Positions 10,557-15,041 of a DNA stretch of 64,000 nt are shown here, piece by piece (the stretch's first letter is position 1; the number at the start of each line of letters is the position of its first letter). The position numbers and the translations under genes were made by a program. Where the stretch lies: positions 434,001-498,000 of the forward strand of contig NZ_FNZG01000001.1 of assembly GCF_900109195.1 (NCBI RefSeq), in the 5' to 3' direction. The notes under the pieces are model-generated. The model had not been told where the DNA came from. It made no database searches and worked only from the letters and a program-made list of their open reading frames with translations. The stretch is from Pseudooceanicola nitratireducens (lineage in GTDB: Bacteria > Pseudomonadota > Alphaproteobacteria > Rhodobacterales > Rhodobacteraceae).

Positions 10557-10925
10557 ATGCGCAACGCGGCCTTGATCCTGGGTCTGATCGGCGGGCTGAT
10601 GGGGCTTCTCGTCGGGCTGGCCAGCTATGGCTACACCAGCGCGGTGGAAACCTTCGGCGAGGTCGAGGGCCTGTTCGAACAGGTCACCCGGCTGGAAGCG
10701 ATCCGCGCAGCATCCGTCATCGCGCCGATCCTGGCGCTGGCCGGCGCGGGCATGGTCAAGGTGCGCGCGCTTTGGGGCGGGCTGCTTCTGCTGGCCTCGG
10801 TCGCGGGGATGTACCTGGGCTTTGGCCTTGGGTTCTTTACGCTTTTCCCGATGACCTTCTGCGCCGTGGCGGGGATCATCGCGCTGGCTGCAGGTCGGCC
10901 GGATGAGCCGAAGGCGCATTTCTGA
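10557..10925 (+). CDS. Small four-helix membrane protein
   Basis: A 122-residue integral membrane protein with about four hydrophobic segments (LILGLIGGLMGLLVGLASYG, SVIAPILALAGAGMVKV, LWGGLLLLASVAGMYLG, FPMTFCAVAGIIALAAG). It resembles DUF4064-like proteins in layout, but this is a weak match by eye. It starts 5 bp after the ArsC-like gene, so the two are probably cotranscribed. Its last 50 bp overlap the 3' end of the convergent DoxX gene. Confidence 0.65.
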   Translation: MRNAALILGLIGGLMGLLVGLASYGYTSAVETFGEVEGLFEQVTRLEAIRAASVIAPILALAGAGMVKVRALWGGLLLLASVAGMYLGFGLGFFTLFPMTFCAVAGIIALAAGRPDEPKAHF

Positions 10926-11439
10926 ACAGCAGCCGGTCGGCAGACAGCACCCCGCCGCCCAGCACCACCAGCGTGGCAAGCGTGGTGATCCAGAATGCCC
11001 GCTGATCCAGGATCAGCGCGTCGGGGGCCTTATCGAACCAGGCCCCCAGGGTGCCTGCGTGGTCGATCCCGCCGTGCCCGAACAGGTCGGTCAGGCTTTG
11101 CACCACGATGAACCCGATCATGCCAAGCGCCGACAGCCGGGTCAGCAGGCCCAACACCACAAGGGCCGGAAGGATGAATTCGGCCCACATTCCGGCCACG
11201 ACCACGGCCCAGTGAAAGACGCCAAGGTTCGACGGGTCATAGCCCGCCGCCTCCATCGCGCGGGGGAAGATCTGCGCATAGGCCCCGACAGAAGGCGAAA
11301 GAAGCCCGAAGATCCCCGATCCCAACTTGGTGACGGCCGAGGCCCAGAAATAGGGCAGAAGCACCGCCGCAAAGGTAAAGCGCGCCAGCAGGGGCAGCAG
11401 CGGGGTGAGGCGGGCGAGGGGGGCGGTCGGGTCAGTCAT
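10876..11439 (-). CDS. DoxX-family membrane protein of the bufferin operon
   Basis: A 187-residue DoxX-type membrane protein with about four transmembrane helices (FTFAAVLLPYFWASAVTKLG, WAEFILPALVVLGLLTRLSA, MIGFIVVQSLTDLFG, WITTLATLVVLGGGV). It is the last gene of the minus-strand bufA-bufB-bufC-doxX operon, 33 bp after bufC. In Caulobacter the bufferin operons also end with a DoxX gene. DoxX proteins are linked to redox and thiol stress; here the role could be electron supply or membrane support, but that is inference. The 3' end overlaps the convergent gene by 50 bp. Confidence 0.88.
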   Translation of the reverse strand: MTDPTAPLARLTPLLPLLARFTFAAVLLPYFWASAVTKLGSGIFGLLSPSVGAYAQIFPRAMEAAGYDPSNLGVFHWAVVVAGMWAEFILPALVVLGLLTRLSALGMIGFIVVQSLTDLFGHGGIDHAGTLGAWFDKAPDALILDQRAFWITTLATLVVLGGGVLSADRLLFRNAPSAHPADLQPAR

Positions 11440-11472
11440 CTCGGGCTCCTGTCTGGGGGTGTGCTTGGGGGA

Positions 11473-12264
11473 TCAGTTGGTTTGCACGGCGGGCTCGGCC
11501 GCAGTGAGAGAGGCAGTGAGAGAAGCGGTCTGCATCAGCAGTGTCAGGATCGCGGCGGGGTCGTGATCGGTGTTGACGGCGGCACCTGCGGCGATCGCCG
11601 TGGCCAAGGTATCCCCGGCGCGCAGGGCGGCCAGGAACGCCACGTCGCCCGGGGCCAGCAGATGCGCCTGCGGGTCGTAATCCGTGCGGGTGATCAGCAC
11701 GTCCTCGGCCCCTGGCTGGGCCGTGGGGGCGGTCGGATCCAGCGCTTTCACGTGGATCGACAGCACGGGCCAGTCCGACCGCAGCACGCGCAGGGCAGGC
11801 ACCAGGCCGAAGCGCTGATCGGGAAGGGCTTCGGGCGGGATGGCGGCCAGCGTCGCATGGGGCAGCGGCGCGCCGTCGGCGGCGTGATAGGCACTGCGTA
11901 GGGCCAGTTCCAGCCGCGCCAGATCCCCCATCCAGCGCATCCGGGCCAGCTGGGGCGCGGCGTCCAGGAAGGCGGGCAGGGCCTGCCCGAAATGCATCAT
12001 CAAAGGCGAGGCGGGGGGATGCACCCGAAGGTAGGCCCCGGCCATGCCGCGGAAGGTCTCGTCCCCCAGCAGGCGGTAACAGGCGGGAAAGCCGTCGATC
12101 AGCGCCTCGGTCAGGCTGACGGCGACATTGTTGCGATAGACGGAAAAGCGCCGCCCGGCTGGGCGTCCGGCCCCGTCCTGCAGGCCCTGTGGCACCGGCT
12201 GGGCAGGATCCAGGATCGCGGCGCGCAGATGCGCCTGATCGGTTGGCGGGGCCGGGGCGATCAT
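11473..12264 (-). CDS. bufC: DUF2063 partner protein of the MNIO enzyme (BufC-like)
   Basis: A 263-residue DUF2063 protein. The N-terminal domain has the family signature RFSVYRNNVAVSLTEALIDG followed by FPACYRLLGDETFRGMAGAY and HPPASPLMMHFG; the C-terminal part is a second mixed alpha/beta domain. DUF2063 is often labelled as DNA-binding, but in RiPP pathways it serves as the partner subunit that helps DUF692 enzymes recognise the precursor. The ATG at 12264 overlaps the bufB stop by 4 bp, so translation is coupled. The bufferin assignment rests on the whole gene set. Confidence 0.88.
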   Translation of the reverse strand: MIAPAPPTDQAHLRAAILDPAQPVPQGLQDGAGRPAGRRFSVYRNNVAVSLTEALIDGFPACYRLLGDETFRGMAGAYLRVHPPASPLMMHFGQALPAFLDAAPQLARMRWMGDLARLELALRSAYHAADGAPLPHATLAAIPPEALPDQRFGLVPALRVLRSDWPVLSIHVKALDPTAPTAQPGAEDVLITRTDYDPQAHLLAPGDVAFLAALRAGDTLATAIAAGAAVNTDHDPAAILTLLMQTASLTASLTAAEPAVQTN

Positions 12265-13118
12265 GCCGCCGCCCTTTCGCCAGCCCGGGTCAGCGCCGCC
12301 TGGCCGCGTGCGGCCTCGGCCGCCAGCACGGGCCAGTCGGGCACATCCGTGTCCCATTCGATCAGCAAGGGCGCGGGGCCGAGGCGGTCCAGTACCACGT
12401 CCAGAAGCGCCCAGACCGGATCCGCGACCGCGCGCCCGTGGCTGTCGATCAACAGCGGCGCGCCGTGGTCGTCGTGGTCTTCGTCATGGCCGCCCAGGTG
12501 CAGTTCGCCTACCTTCTCGATGGGGAAATCGGCGACATAGGCGCGCGCATCCAGGCCAAGGTTCGTGGCCGAGACGAAGACGTTGTTCACATCCAGCAAC
12601 AGGCCACAGCCGGTGCGGTCCGCGACGGCGCGCAGAAAATCCGTCTCGCTCATCTCGCTTTCCGCGAAGGCCAGGTAGGACGAGGGGTTTTCCAGCAGCA
12701 TCCGCCGGCCAAGGGCCTCTTGCAGTTCGTCGATGTGATCGGCGACGCGGGTCAGCGTGGCGGCGGTATAGGGCAGGGGCAGCAGGTCGTTCAGAAAGGC
12801 CCCGTCATGGGTCGACCAGGCCAGGTGTTCGGAAAAACTGGCCGGTTGCAGCCAGTCGCACAGGTGTTTCAGCCGCGCCAGGTGGTCGGGATCAAGGCGG
12901 CCCTCGCCACCGATCGACAGGCCGACGCCATGCACAGAAATCGGAAAACGCTCGGCCAGGTGACGCAGCTGGGCCAGCGGGCGGCCGCCGTCGCCCATGT
13001 AGTTCTCGGCGTGGATCTCAAGCCAGGTGACAGGCGCGGGATCCGTCAGGATCGCGTTGTAATGCTGGGGTTTGTAGCCGACACCGGGACCGGCGGGCAG
13101 GGTGGGGGAACCGGGCAT
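12261..13118 (-). CDS. bufB: DUF692 multinuclear non-heme iron oxygenase (BufB-like)
   Basis: A 285-residue TIM-barrel protein of the DUF692/MNIO family, iron enzymes that modify cysteine in peptide natural products. Metal-ligand blocks are visible in order: WLEIHAENYMGDGG (residues 32-45), HGVGLSIGG, SEHLAW, LLENPSSYL, LLDVNNVFVSA, ELHLGGHDEDHDDHG, LLIDSHG and IEWDTDVPDWP. A GGAGG site precedes the ATG at 13118. It lies 107 bp after the precursor gene, with a hairpin in between. In bufferin systems this enzyme converts Cys of the precursor to thiooxazole; the exact chemistry here is inferred. Confidence 0.94.
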   Translation of the reverse strand: MPGSPTLPAGPGVGYKPQHYNAILTDPAPVTWLEIHAENYMGDGGRPLAQLRHLAERFPISVHGVGLSIGGEGRLDPDHLARLKHLCDWLQPASFSEHLAWSTHDGAFLNDLLPLPYTAATLTRVADHIDELQEALGRRMLLENPSSYLAFAESEMSETDFLRAVADRTGCGLLLDVNNVFVSATNLGLDARAYVADFPIEKVGELHLGGHDEDHDDHGAPLLIDSHGRAVADPVWALLDVVLDRLGPAPLLIEWDTDVPDWPVLAAEAARGQAALTRAGERAAA

Positions 13119-14267: not shown

Positions 14268-14301
14268 GGACGACCAGAGACGACAGGGCCGGATGGACCA
14301 C

Positions 14302-14323
14302 GGGGGTGCCCGCAGGCACCCCC
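14302..14323 (+). terminator. Hairpin between sigma and anti-sigma genes
   Basis: GGGGGTGCC (14302-14310) pairs perfectly with GGCACCCCC (14315-14323) across a 4-base loop. It starts 35 bp after the sigma stop and lies 77 bp before nrsF. No T-run follows. It could reduce read-through into the anti-sigma gene. Confidence 0.55.
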
Positions 14324-14399
14324 CGGAGTGGGCCGGAAAAGCCCGGATAAGCCCGGACAAGACAGCAACGGTCAAGCGACCGGAAGAGACGAAGACAAG

Positions 14400-15041
14400 A
14401 TGAAGACCGACGATCTGATCACCATGCTGGCACAGGATGCCGCCCCGACCCCCGCCGCGCCCCTGGCGCGCCGGACGGGATACGGGCTTGCCGTCGGCTT
14501 TGCCGTGGCTCTGGGGCTGTTTCTTGCGGTGCTCGGGCCGCGCCCGGGTCTGGGCGGGCTGATGCTGGACCCGGTCGTTCTGGCCAAGACCCTGCTGCCG
14601 CTGGCGCTGTTTGCGCTGGCGCTGCGGCTTGGGCTTCGATCGGTGCGCCCGGGCCGCGCGCCGGGCCGCACGGCCTGGGTGATCTGGGCGGTGCCCGCGC
14701 TGACGGCGGCGCTGTTCGTCTGGGCCTTTGCCGTGACCCCGGCCGAAACTCGCATGGTCGATTTCCTGGGCCATTCGATCCCGGTCTGCCTGCCGGCGAT
14801 CAACCTGATGTCGCTGCCGATCCTGGCCGGGCTGATCGCGGCCCTGCGGCGCGGCGCGCCGGTGGATCCGCAGAAGGCCGGGGCGCTGGCCGGACTGGCC
14901 GCGGCGGGCCTGGCGACCGCGCTGTATTCCACCTTCTGCACCGAGGATTCCCCGCTGTTCTACAGCGTCTGGTATTCGGTCGGCATCGCCATCACCACCG
15001 CCCTTGGTGCCGTGGCCGGGTCGCGCTGGCTGCGCTGGTAA
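14400..15041 (+). CDS. nrsF: NrsF family (DUF1109) membrane anti-sigma factor
   Basis: A 213-residue inner-membrane protein with six predicted helices and a short cytoplasmic N-terminus (MKTDDLITMLAQDAAP), the usual DUF1109/NrsF layout. Two Cys stand out, C130 in HSIPVCLPAIN and C180 in YSTFCTEDSPLFY. They are 50 residues apart, as I recall for the two functional Cys of Caulobacter NrsF. It should hold SigF inactive until a metal or thiol signal arrives. The start at 14400 is chosen to match the conserved N-terminus; a 24-codon extension upstream is unlikely. Confidence 0.9.
   Translation: MKTDDLITMLAQDAAPTPAAPLARRTGYGLAVGFAVALGLFLAVLGPRPGLGGLMLDPVVLAKTLLPLALFALALRLGLRSVRPGRAPGRTAWVIWAVPALTAALFVWAFAVTPAETRMVDFLGHSIPVCLPAINLMSLPILAGLIAALRRGAPVDPQKAGALAGLAAAGLATALYSTFCTEDSPLFYSVWYSVGIAITTALGAVAGSRWLRW

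What the first reader, a model, noticed from the sequence alone, without database searches (positions are those of the whole stretch)
10876..15041. Complete bufferin-type RiPP locus with its own ECF sigma/anti-sigma pair
DUF2282 precursor (4 Cys), DUF692 MNIO enzyme, DUF2063 partner and DoxX form one operon, divergent from SigF and NrsF. Bufferins were recently described in Caulobacter as copper-binding thiooxazole peptides. A roseobacter-type locus that couples the peptide operon to a sigma/anti-sigma pair in one divergent unit would be a self-contained metal-stress module. The gene identities are seen in the sequence; copper binding and thiooxazole chemistry come from the Caulobacter family.
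Basis: partly seen in the sequence, partly recalled or inferred. Interest (0 to 1): 0.9.

Follow-up and report, generated by a model that had tools for sequence, protein, structure and literature searches.

The report
Copper-peptide operon with divergent sigma control
This marine bacterium carries a known type of gene set that makes a copper-binding peptide next to its own stress switch, arranged as in Caulobacter, and the peptide's promoter also carries a conserved control site that points to a second, still unidentified regulator.

Summary
In detail: bufA (DUF2282, 4 Cys), bufB (MNIO), bufC (DUF2063) and doxX form one operon, divergent from an ECF sigma factor and NrsF. The novelty claim is not. 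Caulobacter has the same six genes in the same layout, sigma-F dependent and copper-induced, and Buf1 clusters with sigma and NrsF genes have been surveyed (PMC3511200, PMC8224329, PMC12452194). New here is the control region. Both divergent units have exact sigma-F promoters (GTAAC-N17-CGAA), the only two in the window. The bufA promoter also has a palindrome, TCAC-N6-GTGA, five bases above its -35 box: 21 of 33 bufA-side sigma-F sites examined have it within one mismatch, 0 of 26 sigF-side sites do. In related roseobacters whose buf operon lacks the sigma/NrsF pair, bufA mostly has two tandem copies of this site above a sigma-70-like -10 box. The two promoter types hardly overlap: tandem in 0 of 23 linked rows, 71 of 76 unlinked rows, though few independent switches underlie this. 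I read it as an ordinary Buf1/sigma-F locus plus a second, unidentified regulator. Promoter function, copper response and peptide chemistry were not tested.

The parts
10876..11439 (-). doxX: DoxX-family membrane protein, last gene of the buf operon
   Evidence: PF07681 25.5 bits (cut-off 23.6); weak HvfX-family match (18.6 bits, cut-off 80)
11473..12264 (-). bufC: DUF2063 partner protein of the MNIO enzyme (PME type 1)
   Evidence: PF09836 83.5 bits; start codon overlaps the bufB stop
12261..13118 (-). bufB: MNIO (DUF692) enzyme
   Evidence: PF05114 345.7 bits; NCBIfam MNIO_BufB above cut-off; His/Glu/Asp/Asn positions that align with 3BWW, the DUF692 protein 8HCI and MbnB 7DZ9 are among those at least 98% conserved in 99 BufB rows of 280 bits or more
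13226..13549 (-). bufA: Buf1 bufferin precursor, 107 aa, signal-peptide-like N-terminus, Cys 33, 44, 52, 73
   Evidence: PF10048 77.2 bits; Cys positions
13621..13646 (-). sigma-F-type promoter of bufA (GTAAC-N17-CGAA)
   Evidence: 2 matches in the window against 0.11 expected; in front of bufA in 8 of 8 named linked loci
13652..13665 (.). palindrome TCAC-N6-GTGA, five bases upstream of the bufA -35 box; proposed operator of a second regulator
   Evidence: composite with the -35 box occurs once in the genome; 21 of 33 bufA-side against 0 of 26 sigF-side sigma-F sites have it within one mismatch
13694..13719 (+). sigma-F-type promoter of sigF-nrsF (GTAAC-N17-CGAA)
   Evidence: in front of sigF in 6 of 8 named linked loci
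13731..14267 (+). sigF: ECF sigma factor (sigma-F type)
   Evidence: PF04542 and PF04545; NF009165 186.5 bits, below its cut-off of 198
14400..15041 (+). nrsF: membrane anti-sigma factor (DUF1109/NrsF), Cys 130 and 180 only
   Evidence: PF06532 183.9 bits; both Cys invariant in 40 of 40 aligned rows of 60 bits or more

Best explanation
The locus is a Buf1 bufferin gene cluster with its sigma-F/NrsF switch, of the same kind and arrangement as Caulobacter CC3252-CC3257. Proposed working, by homology: NrsF in the inner membrane holds sigma-F. Excess thiol-reactive metal, most likely copper, acts through its two Cys (130, 180) and frees sigma-F, which fires both divergent promoters. BufA is made, BufB with BufC turns its two central Cys into thiooxazoles, the peptide is exported by Sec and binds copper in the periplasm. 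The step I add: the bufA promoter, but not the sigF promoter, also has a conserved dimer-type site (TCAC-N6-GTGA) just upstream of the -35 box. A second, unlinked regulator therefore probably acts on bufA. In related bacteria without the sigma/NrsF pair beside bufA, two tandem copies of the same kind of site in front of a sigma-70-like promoter appear to do the job alone. Shown here: gene content, promoter sequences, Cys and motif conservation, distribution of both promoter types. Inferred: binding, induction, metal, chemistry, and the existence and sign (activator more likely than repressor, from position) of the second regulator.
For: Families. Two exact sigma-F sites, the only ones in 64 kb, 0 of 100 shuffles with two. 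Site in front of bufA in 8 of 8 linked named loci; within 500 bp of bufA in 3 of 72 unlinked, all three at -226. NrsF C130 and C180 invariant in 40 of 40 rows, matching Caulobacter C131 and C181, where Ser substitution derepresses the regulon (PMC3511200). Palindrome within one mismatch: 21 of 33 bufA-side, 0 of 26 sigF-side, 5 of 1650 single-letter shuffles. Tandem version, a pattern drawn from these same promoters: 62 of 71 unlinked within 2 mismatches of 15 specified bases, 0 of 710 shuffles. Outside test: 37 of its 53 exact matches in 198 family genomes lie just upstream of a DUF2282 gene (my hand reading of coordinates); the reversed pattern gives 3 matches. Spacing: GTGA to CGAA 27 nt in 16 of 21 linked; a TAnnnT box starts 22-27 nt below GTGA in 50 of 69 unlinked, 4.3 expected.
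Against: No expression, binding or metal data for this organism. Not all linked loci have the palindrome: 12 of 33 bufA-side sites lack it (3 in the family, 9 outside, one of these with no upstream sequence held), and 4 of 17 fetched genus loci lack the exact composite. The second regulator is unnamed: no regulator gene is generally conserved beside the operon; one ArsR-type frame recurs 3.5-5.5 kb away in 14 of 80 loci, all unlinked, not tested. The switch between promoter types rests on few independent events: 3 pairs on starred branches, sign test not significant. At genome scale the sigma-F pattern is not enriched: 5 hits against 14 for the reversed pattern, and 20 against 56 with spacing 16-18, so the case rests on position and conservation. 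Caulobacter sigF was reported as not strongly autoregulated under chromate (PMC3511200), though copper raised it strongly (PMC8224329).
Confidence: 0.8

Rival explanations
1. The locus is governed by sigma-F/NrsF alone (a truly self-contained module). The palindrome is only an extended promoter or UP-like element that RNA polymerase with sigma-F uses at bufA.
For: It sits five bases from the -35 box in 17 of 21 cases, and Caulobacter promoter work spoke only of the -35/-10 motif (PMC3511200, parts read).
Against: Absent from all 26 sigF-side sigma-F promoters, and the same kind of unit, doubled, occurs at bufA promoters that have no sigma-F site.
Confidence: 0.2
2. The tandem element in unlinked loci is itself the promoter of another ECF sigma factor (a TGACG-type -35 and a CGTGA-type -10), so one sigma factor was replaced by another and there is no dimeric regulator.
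For: Two conserved outer boxes 19 bases apart (sequences), a little long for an ECF promoter (recalled).
Against: A TAnnnT box at 24-25 nt further downstream is conserved; the inner CAC half-site is conserved too; the single-copy form lies upstream of, not within, the sigma-F promoter.
Confidence: 0.2
3. The operon serves mainly another metal or thiol stress (chromate, cadmium, gold, hypochlorous acid) rather than copper.
For: Caulobacter sigma-F genes are induced by chromate and cadmium (PMC3511200); the gig operon of this type responds to gold (PMC8224329, passages).
Against: In Caulobacter, loss of sigF gave copper sensitivity (PMC8224329) but no chromate or cadmium sensitivity (PMC3511200), and bufferins are reported to bind copper (PMC12452194).
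Confidence: 0.15
4. The gene cluster is decayed or silent here.
For: In one genus member (G504, L245) bufA, both promoters and the adjoining gene ends are missing from the 3.6 kb examined.
Against: In the window all six frames are intact, both promoters are exact, and Cys and enzyme motif positions are kept.
Confidence: 0.03

Closest known systems
Caulobacter crescentus/vibrioides CC3252-CC3257 (CCNA_03273, 03362-03366): nrsF-sigF divergent from DUF2282-DUF692-DUF2063-DoxX
   Same: Same six genes, same order and same divergent layout (from gene numbers and operon direction in PMC3511200); same promoter class GTAACC-N16-CGAA; two NrsF Cys at matching places; the bufA -10 box lies 71 nt above the start codon here, the Caulobacter start site at -61.
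   Different: Here one bufferin locus in the genome, whereas Caulobacter has two sigma-F-dependent operons of this kind plus an msrP-type target; no sigma-F site was found at the two clear msrP-family genes here. A TCAC-N6-GTGA site is present here; I did not examine the named Caulobacter genome for it.
Buf1 bufferin gene clusters surveyed in 2025 (PMC12452194)
   Same: DUF2282 precursor with four Cys, MNIO, DUF2063, DoxX, and sigma factor plus NrsF genes, the latter reported for Buf1 and not Buf2 clusters.
   Different: Nothing in gene content. In the section and passages I saw, promoters were not analysed.
gig/dax operons of Cupriavidus metallidurans and Legionella
   Same: Same core operon, metal-induced (passages of PMC8224329; start of the abstract of PMC5413113 in a search listing).
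   Different: Their regulation was not described in what I saw.

Membership tests
Buf1 bufferin cluster | DUF2282 precursor with four conserved Cys and Sec signal | tested here: met
   PF10048 77.2 bits; Cys 33, 44, 52, 73. The signal peptide was judged by eye only.
Buf1 bufferin cluster | MNIO enzyme of the BufB type with its metal ligands | tested here: met
   NCBIfam MNIO_BufB above cut-off; His/Glu/Asp/Asn motif residues conserved. That these are the ligands is recalled.
Buf1 bufferin cluster | DUF2063 partner protein encoded next to the MNIO | tested here: met
   PF09836 83.5 bits
Buf1 bufferin cluster | Thiooxazoles on the two central Cys and copper binding | not testable with these tools
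   needs mass spectrometry and metal titration
Sigma-F/NrsF (ECF16-type) regulatory pair | ECF sigma gene followed by a DUF1109/NrsF gene with two conserved Cys | tested here: met
   Membrane helices were not predicted. The name ECF16 is recalled and was seen only in a search listing. NCBIfam subfamily models score below cut-off.
Sigma-F/NrsF (ECF16-type) regulatory pair | GTAAC(C)-N16-CGAA promoter upstream of target and of sigF | tested here: met
   (base after GTAAC is A or G here, C in Caulobacter); relatives
Sigma-F/NrsF (ECF16-type) regulatory pair | Sigma-F-dependent, metal-induced transcription | not testable with these tools
   needs RNA from a sigF deletion strain
   A conserved extra palindrome at bufA argues against it; no regulator identified

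The most novel reading that the evidence does not exclude
Bufferin production in the roseobacter group is under a second, undescribed dimeric regulator that reads (T/G)CAC-N6-GTGA. In sigma-F-linked loci one copy sits five bases above the sigma-F -35 box. Where sigF-nrsF is missing beside bufA, a sigma-70-like core promoter lies below two tandem copies. The core promoter was swapped beneath a kept operator, possibly even within one genus (G485).
Probability: 0.6. Interest if true: 0.6.

Novelty: new member of a known kind. Interest (0 to 1): 0.42.

Why it matters
The locus itself adds a clean Pseudooceanicola-type example of a known system. The control region is worth more. In a sample of 198 genomes of the family, DUF2282 matches 140 and NrsF only 30, so in many of them something other than a linked sigma-F presumably switches the peptide on. 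The shared operator-like site gives a short DNA bait with which to fish for that regulator, and the linked and unlinked loci at one chromosomal site are a natural experiment on how a sigma-factor circuit is dropped without losing control of its target.

Tried and rejected
Sigma-F regulon elsewhere in the genome: strict pattern 5 hits (reversed control 14), of which 3 lie inside or at the very start of coding frames (frames read by eye); spacing 16-18 gives 20 hits against 56 in the reversed control, the extra ones not inspected. Four matches to the MsrP/YedY family exist; around the two clear ones (about 3.5 kb each) there is no sigma-F site except one degenerate match; the two weak ones were not inspected. 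So no further target is claimed.

Naming the second regulator: among the 40 commonest neighbour-frame clusters of 80 named loci, read by one example each, no regulator recurs generally; an ArsR-type frame occurs in 14 loci, all unlinked, 3.5-5.5 kb from bufA, and was not tested. Of 30 fetched loci with exact tandem sites (of 53), 20 have bufA; the other 10 show no recurring gene. A search for four motif strings in papers gave nothing relevant among the 10 listed of 155. BufC as that regulator (Pfam calls DUF2063 a putative DNA-binding domain) is unlikely, since BufB/BufC-type loci without the site exist.

RNA elements: none in the window at gathering scores or in 13540-13740 up to E 1. tRNAs: none. 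Gain or loss of sigF-nrsF: the BufB tree needs 6 changes, at least 4 on starred branches, and basal rows are linked, which suggests loss, but the outgroup was not one clade and the root is unsure. The metagenome, phage and plasmid collections and the large protein search were not used.

Rows dropped: L081 (same genome as L045) and L047 (BufB in two pieces) from the tree and the linkage table; L122 (no start found) from promoter counts; L258 from the linkage table (genome 77% complete); L056 from the promoter-gap count (second site does not face bufA). bufA starts in relatives were chosen by a script rule. Several genus loci look like the same genomes as loci, so these counts are not added up.
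Full report
What is there. The window lies in a 4.06 Mb genome of the same genus as G192. G192's contig length equals that of a Pseudooceanicola onchidii record (1,638,634 bases), so the genus is most likely Pseudooceanicola. The six genes are intact and match their families. BufB aligns with the DUF692 structures 3BWW and 8HCI and with MbnB, and His, Glu, Asp and Asn positions in the shared motifs are among those at least 98% conserved in 99 BufB rows; that these are metal ligands is recalled, not tested. 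BufA has four Cys; in Buf1 the two central ones are modified and the outer two form a disulphide (PMC12452194, section 14 read). NrsF has only two Cys, 130 and 180, invariant in 40 of 40 rows of at least 60 bits.

What was known. PMC3511200 (parts 1-4 of 7 read) shows in Caulobacter that sigma-F controls CC3254-CC3257 (DUF2282, DUF692, DUF2063, DoxX), that sigF-nrsF (CC3253-CC3252) lies beside it, that the promoters read GTAACC-N16-CGAA, and that Cys-to-Ser changes at 131 and 181 of NrsF raise the regulon and release sigma-F. Divergence follows from the gene numbers. PMC8224329 (passages) shows copper induction of the whole set in two media and copper sensitivity of a sigF mutant. PMC12452194 (section 14 and passages) lists sigma factor and NrsF genes as part of Buf1 clusters. 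PMC12668002 (passages) says that Caulobacter bufferin 1 was assigned 5-thiooxazoles and shows them for related peptides. The primary bufferin paper did not appear in my searches and is cited through these. So the finding's central idea, a peptide operon coupled to its own sigma/anti-sigma pair, is already established.

How common it is. In 198 genomes drawn from the family, DUF2282 matches 140 and NrsF 30, 29 of these over the cut-off. Linkage of the two was seen in 17: the window and the 16 fetched loci L045-L060, all with sigF beside bufA and bufB, in 14 of the 16 divergent, in L052 in the same direction and in L056 convergent. In the genus NrsF passes the cut-off in 19 of 22 genomes. In the class NrsF matches 56 of 289; of 29 loci examined with about 1.5 kb flanks, 15 have a bufA or bufB frame beside sigF or nrsF. 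The linked form is therefore widespread in Alphaproteobacteria and a minority within this family.

The two sigma-F promoters. GTAAC-N17-CGAA occurs twice in the window, at 13621-13646 (minus, bufA) and 13694-13719 (plus, sigF), against 0.11 expected; 0 of 100 shuffles reached two. In the whole genome it occurs 5 times, fewer than the reversed control (14), so position and conservation carry the case. In the 80 best named loci kept from a BufB search (of 532 confirmed), 8 are linked and 72 are not. The site lies in front of bufA in 8 of 8 linked and in front of sigF in 6 of 8; it lies within 500 bp of bufA in 3 of 72 unlinked, all at -226. The gap between the two -35 boxes is 45-48 bp in 11 of 17 loci where both sites were found by the pattern (leaving out the duplicate L081 and L056). 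One genome with sigF-nrsF elsewhere (G175) keeps a well-placed sigma-F site at its unlinked bufA, consistent with control in trans (L072). Of the three other such loci, L075 has the tandem element described below and L073 and L074 have neither exact site.

The extra site. Just above the bufA -35 box lies TCAC-N6-GTGA (13652-13665). The composite TCAC-N6-GTGAG-N4-GTAAC occurs once in the genome. Among 33 bufA-side sigma-F sites from family and class loci, 21 have the palindrome within one mismatch 2-9 nt above the -35 box (five nt in 17 of 21); 0 of 26 sigF-side sites do; 5 of 1650 single-letter shuffles do. In 17 further genus loci the exact composite is in 13 (some are the same genomes as). 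Of the 12 bufA-side sites without it, 9 come from outside the family; 4 from outside the family have it.

Unlinked promoters. Upstream of 71 unlinked roseobacter bufA genes the tandem form AC-N6-GTGA-N-RCAC-N6-GTGA, which I had drawn from these same sequences, is met exactly in 35, with one mismatch in 21, two in 6, three in 7, five in 2; of 710 shuffles none has fewer than three mismatches. As an outside test, a search of 198 family genomes gives 53 exact matches in 50 genomes, against 3 for the reversed pattern; by hand reading of coordinates 37 of 53 lie just upstream of a DUF2282 gene. The other 16 show no common gene in the 10 that were fetched. A TAnnnT box starts 22-27 nt below the last GTGA in 50 of 69 (4.3 expected), at much the same distance as the sigma-F -10 box in linked loci (27 nt in 16 of 21).

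Same place, different control. Among the 80 named loci, thrS and arsC relatives are found in the fetched stretch in 8 of 8 linked loci and in 69 and 64 of 72 unlinked ones, so both types sit at one chromosomal site and the sigF-nrsF pair is a present/absent block between thrS and bufA. This does not hold for the more distant linked loci of the family: of L045-L060 only L045 and L048 show thrS. In the table, linked rows have the tandem element in 0 of 23 and a sigma-F site in 19 of 23; unlinked rows have the tandem element (up to three mismatches) in 71 of 76 and a sigma-F site in 4 of 76. G485, a member of the same genus with no NrsF match over the cut-off, has the tandem element (2 mismatches) and no sigma-F site. 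The tree of BufB needs 6 changes of linkage (at least 4 on starred branches), but only 3 independent pairs on starred branches exist and the sign test cannot reach significance, so the association is strong in numbers and weak in independent events.

Reading. Sigma-F/NrsF control of this locus is about as well supported as sequence can make it. A second input at bufA is the simplest account of a palindrome that is specific to bufA, occurs whether or not sigma-F is linked, and is doubled where the linked sigma-F is gone. Its position just above the -35 region suits an activator. No candidate gene was found, and no paper seen names such a site: (motif strings, 10 of 155 listed; 9 papers holding DUF2282; titles and abstract starts of 8 listed) nothing of the sort appeared, and PMC3511200 holds no 'palindrom', 'operator' or 'inverted repeat'. 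That is a narrow search. I score the locus as an ordinary member of a known kind, and the control-region result as a modest but testable addition.

Noticed in passing
window 15219-16358 (+): An old-yellow-enzyme-type flavin oxidoreductase gene (named by eye) lies between nrsF and thrS; no relative of it was found in the 111 fetched loci compared (tblastn E 1e-5), so it looks like a local insertion.
   Followed up: partly
window 9009-9305 (+): Small secreted-looking protein of 98 aa with a Cys-Cys pair; no Pfam or NCBIfam match at E 0.01.
   Followed up: no
window 7340-8338 (+): Esterase-like protein (by eye) ending in VPLPA, a hydrophobic stretch and RRR, like a PEP-CTERM/VPLPA sorting signal (seen; the name is recalled).
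   Followed up: no
window 13226-13320 (-), C-terminus of BufA: Beyond the DUF2282 domain many of the BufA proteins listed end in a tail of the type GSLxxLxRDLP; function unknown, perhaps enzyme recognition.
   Followed up: no
L071 (G130): A DUF2282-like protein that lacks the two central Cys, with no bufB found in the 10 kb fetched.
   Followed up: no
L245 (G504, same genus): bufA, both promoters and the adjoining ends of sigF and bufB are missing in the 3.6 kb examined, and the remains of the two genes overlap: a deletion or an assembly fault.
   Followed up: partly
L130, L134, L146, L151; G007 and G100: Two bufA-type genes close together, in the four L loci in front of one bufB.
   Followed up: no
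L047 (G149): bufB read in two overlapping frames, possibly a frameshift; left as found.
   Followed up: no
named unlinked loci, e.g. L094:449-1210: An ArsR-type regulator frame recurs several kb upstream of bufA in 14 of 80 named loci, all unlinked; not tested as the second regulator.
   Followed up: no
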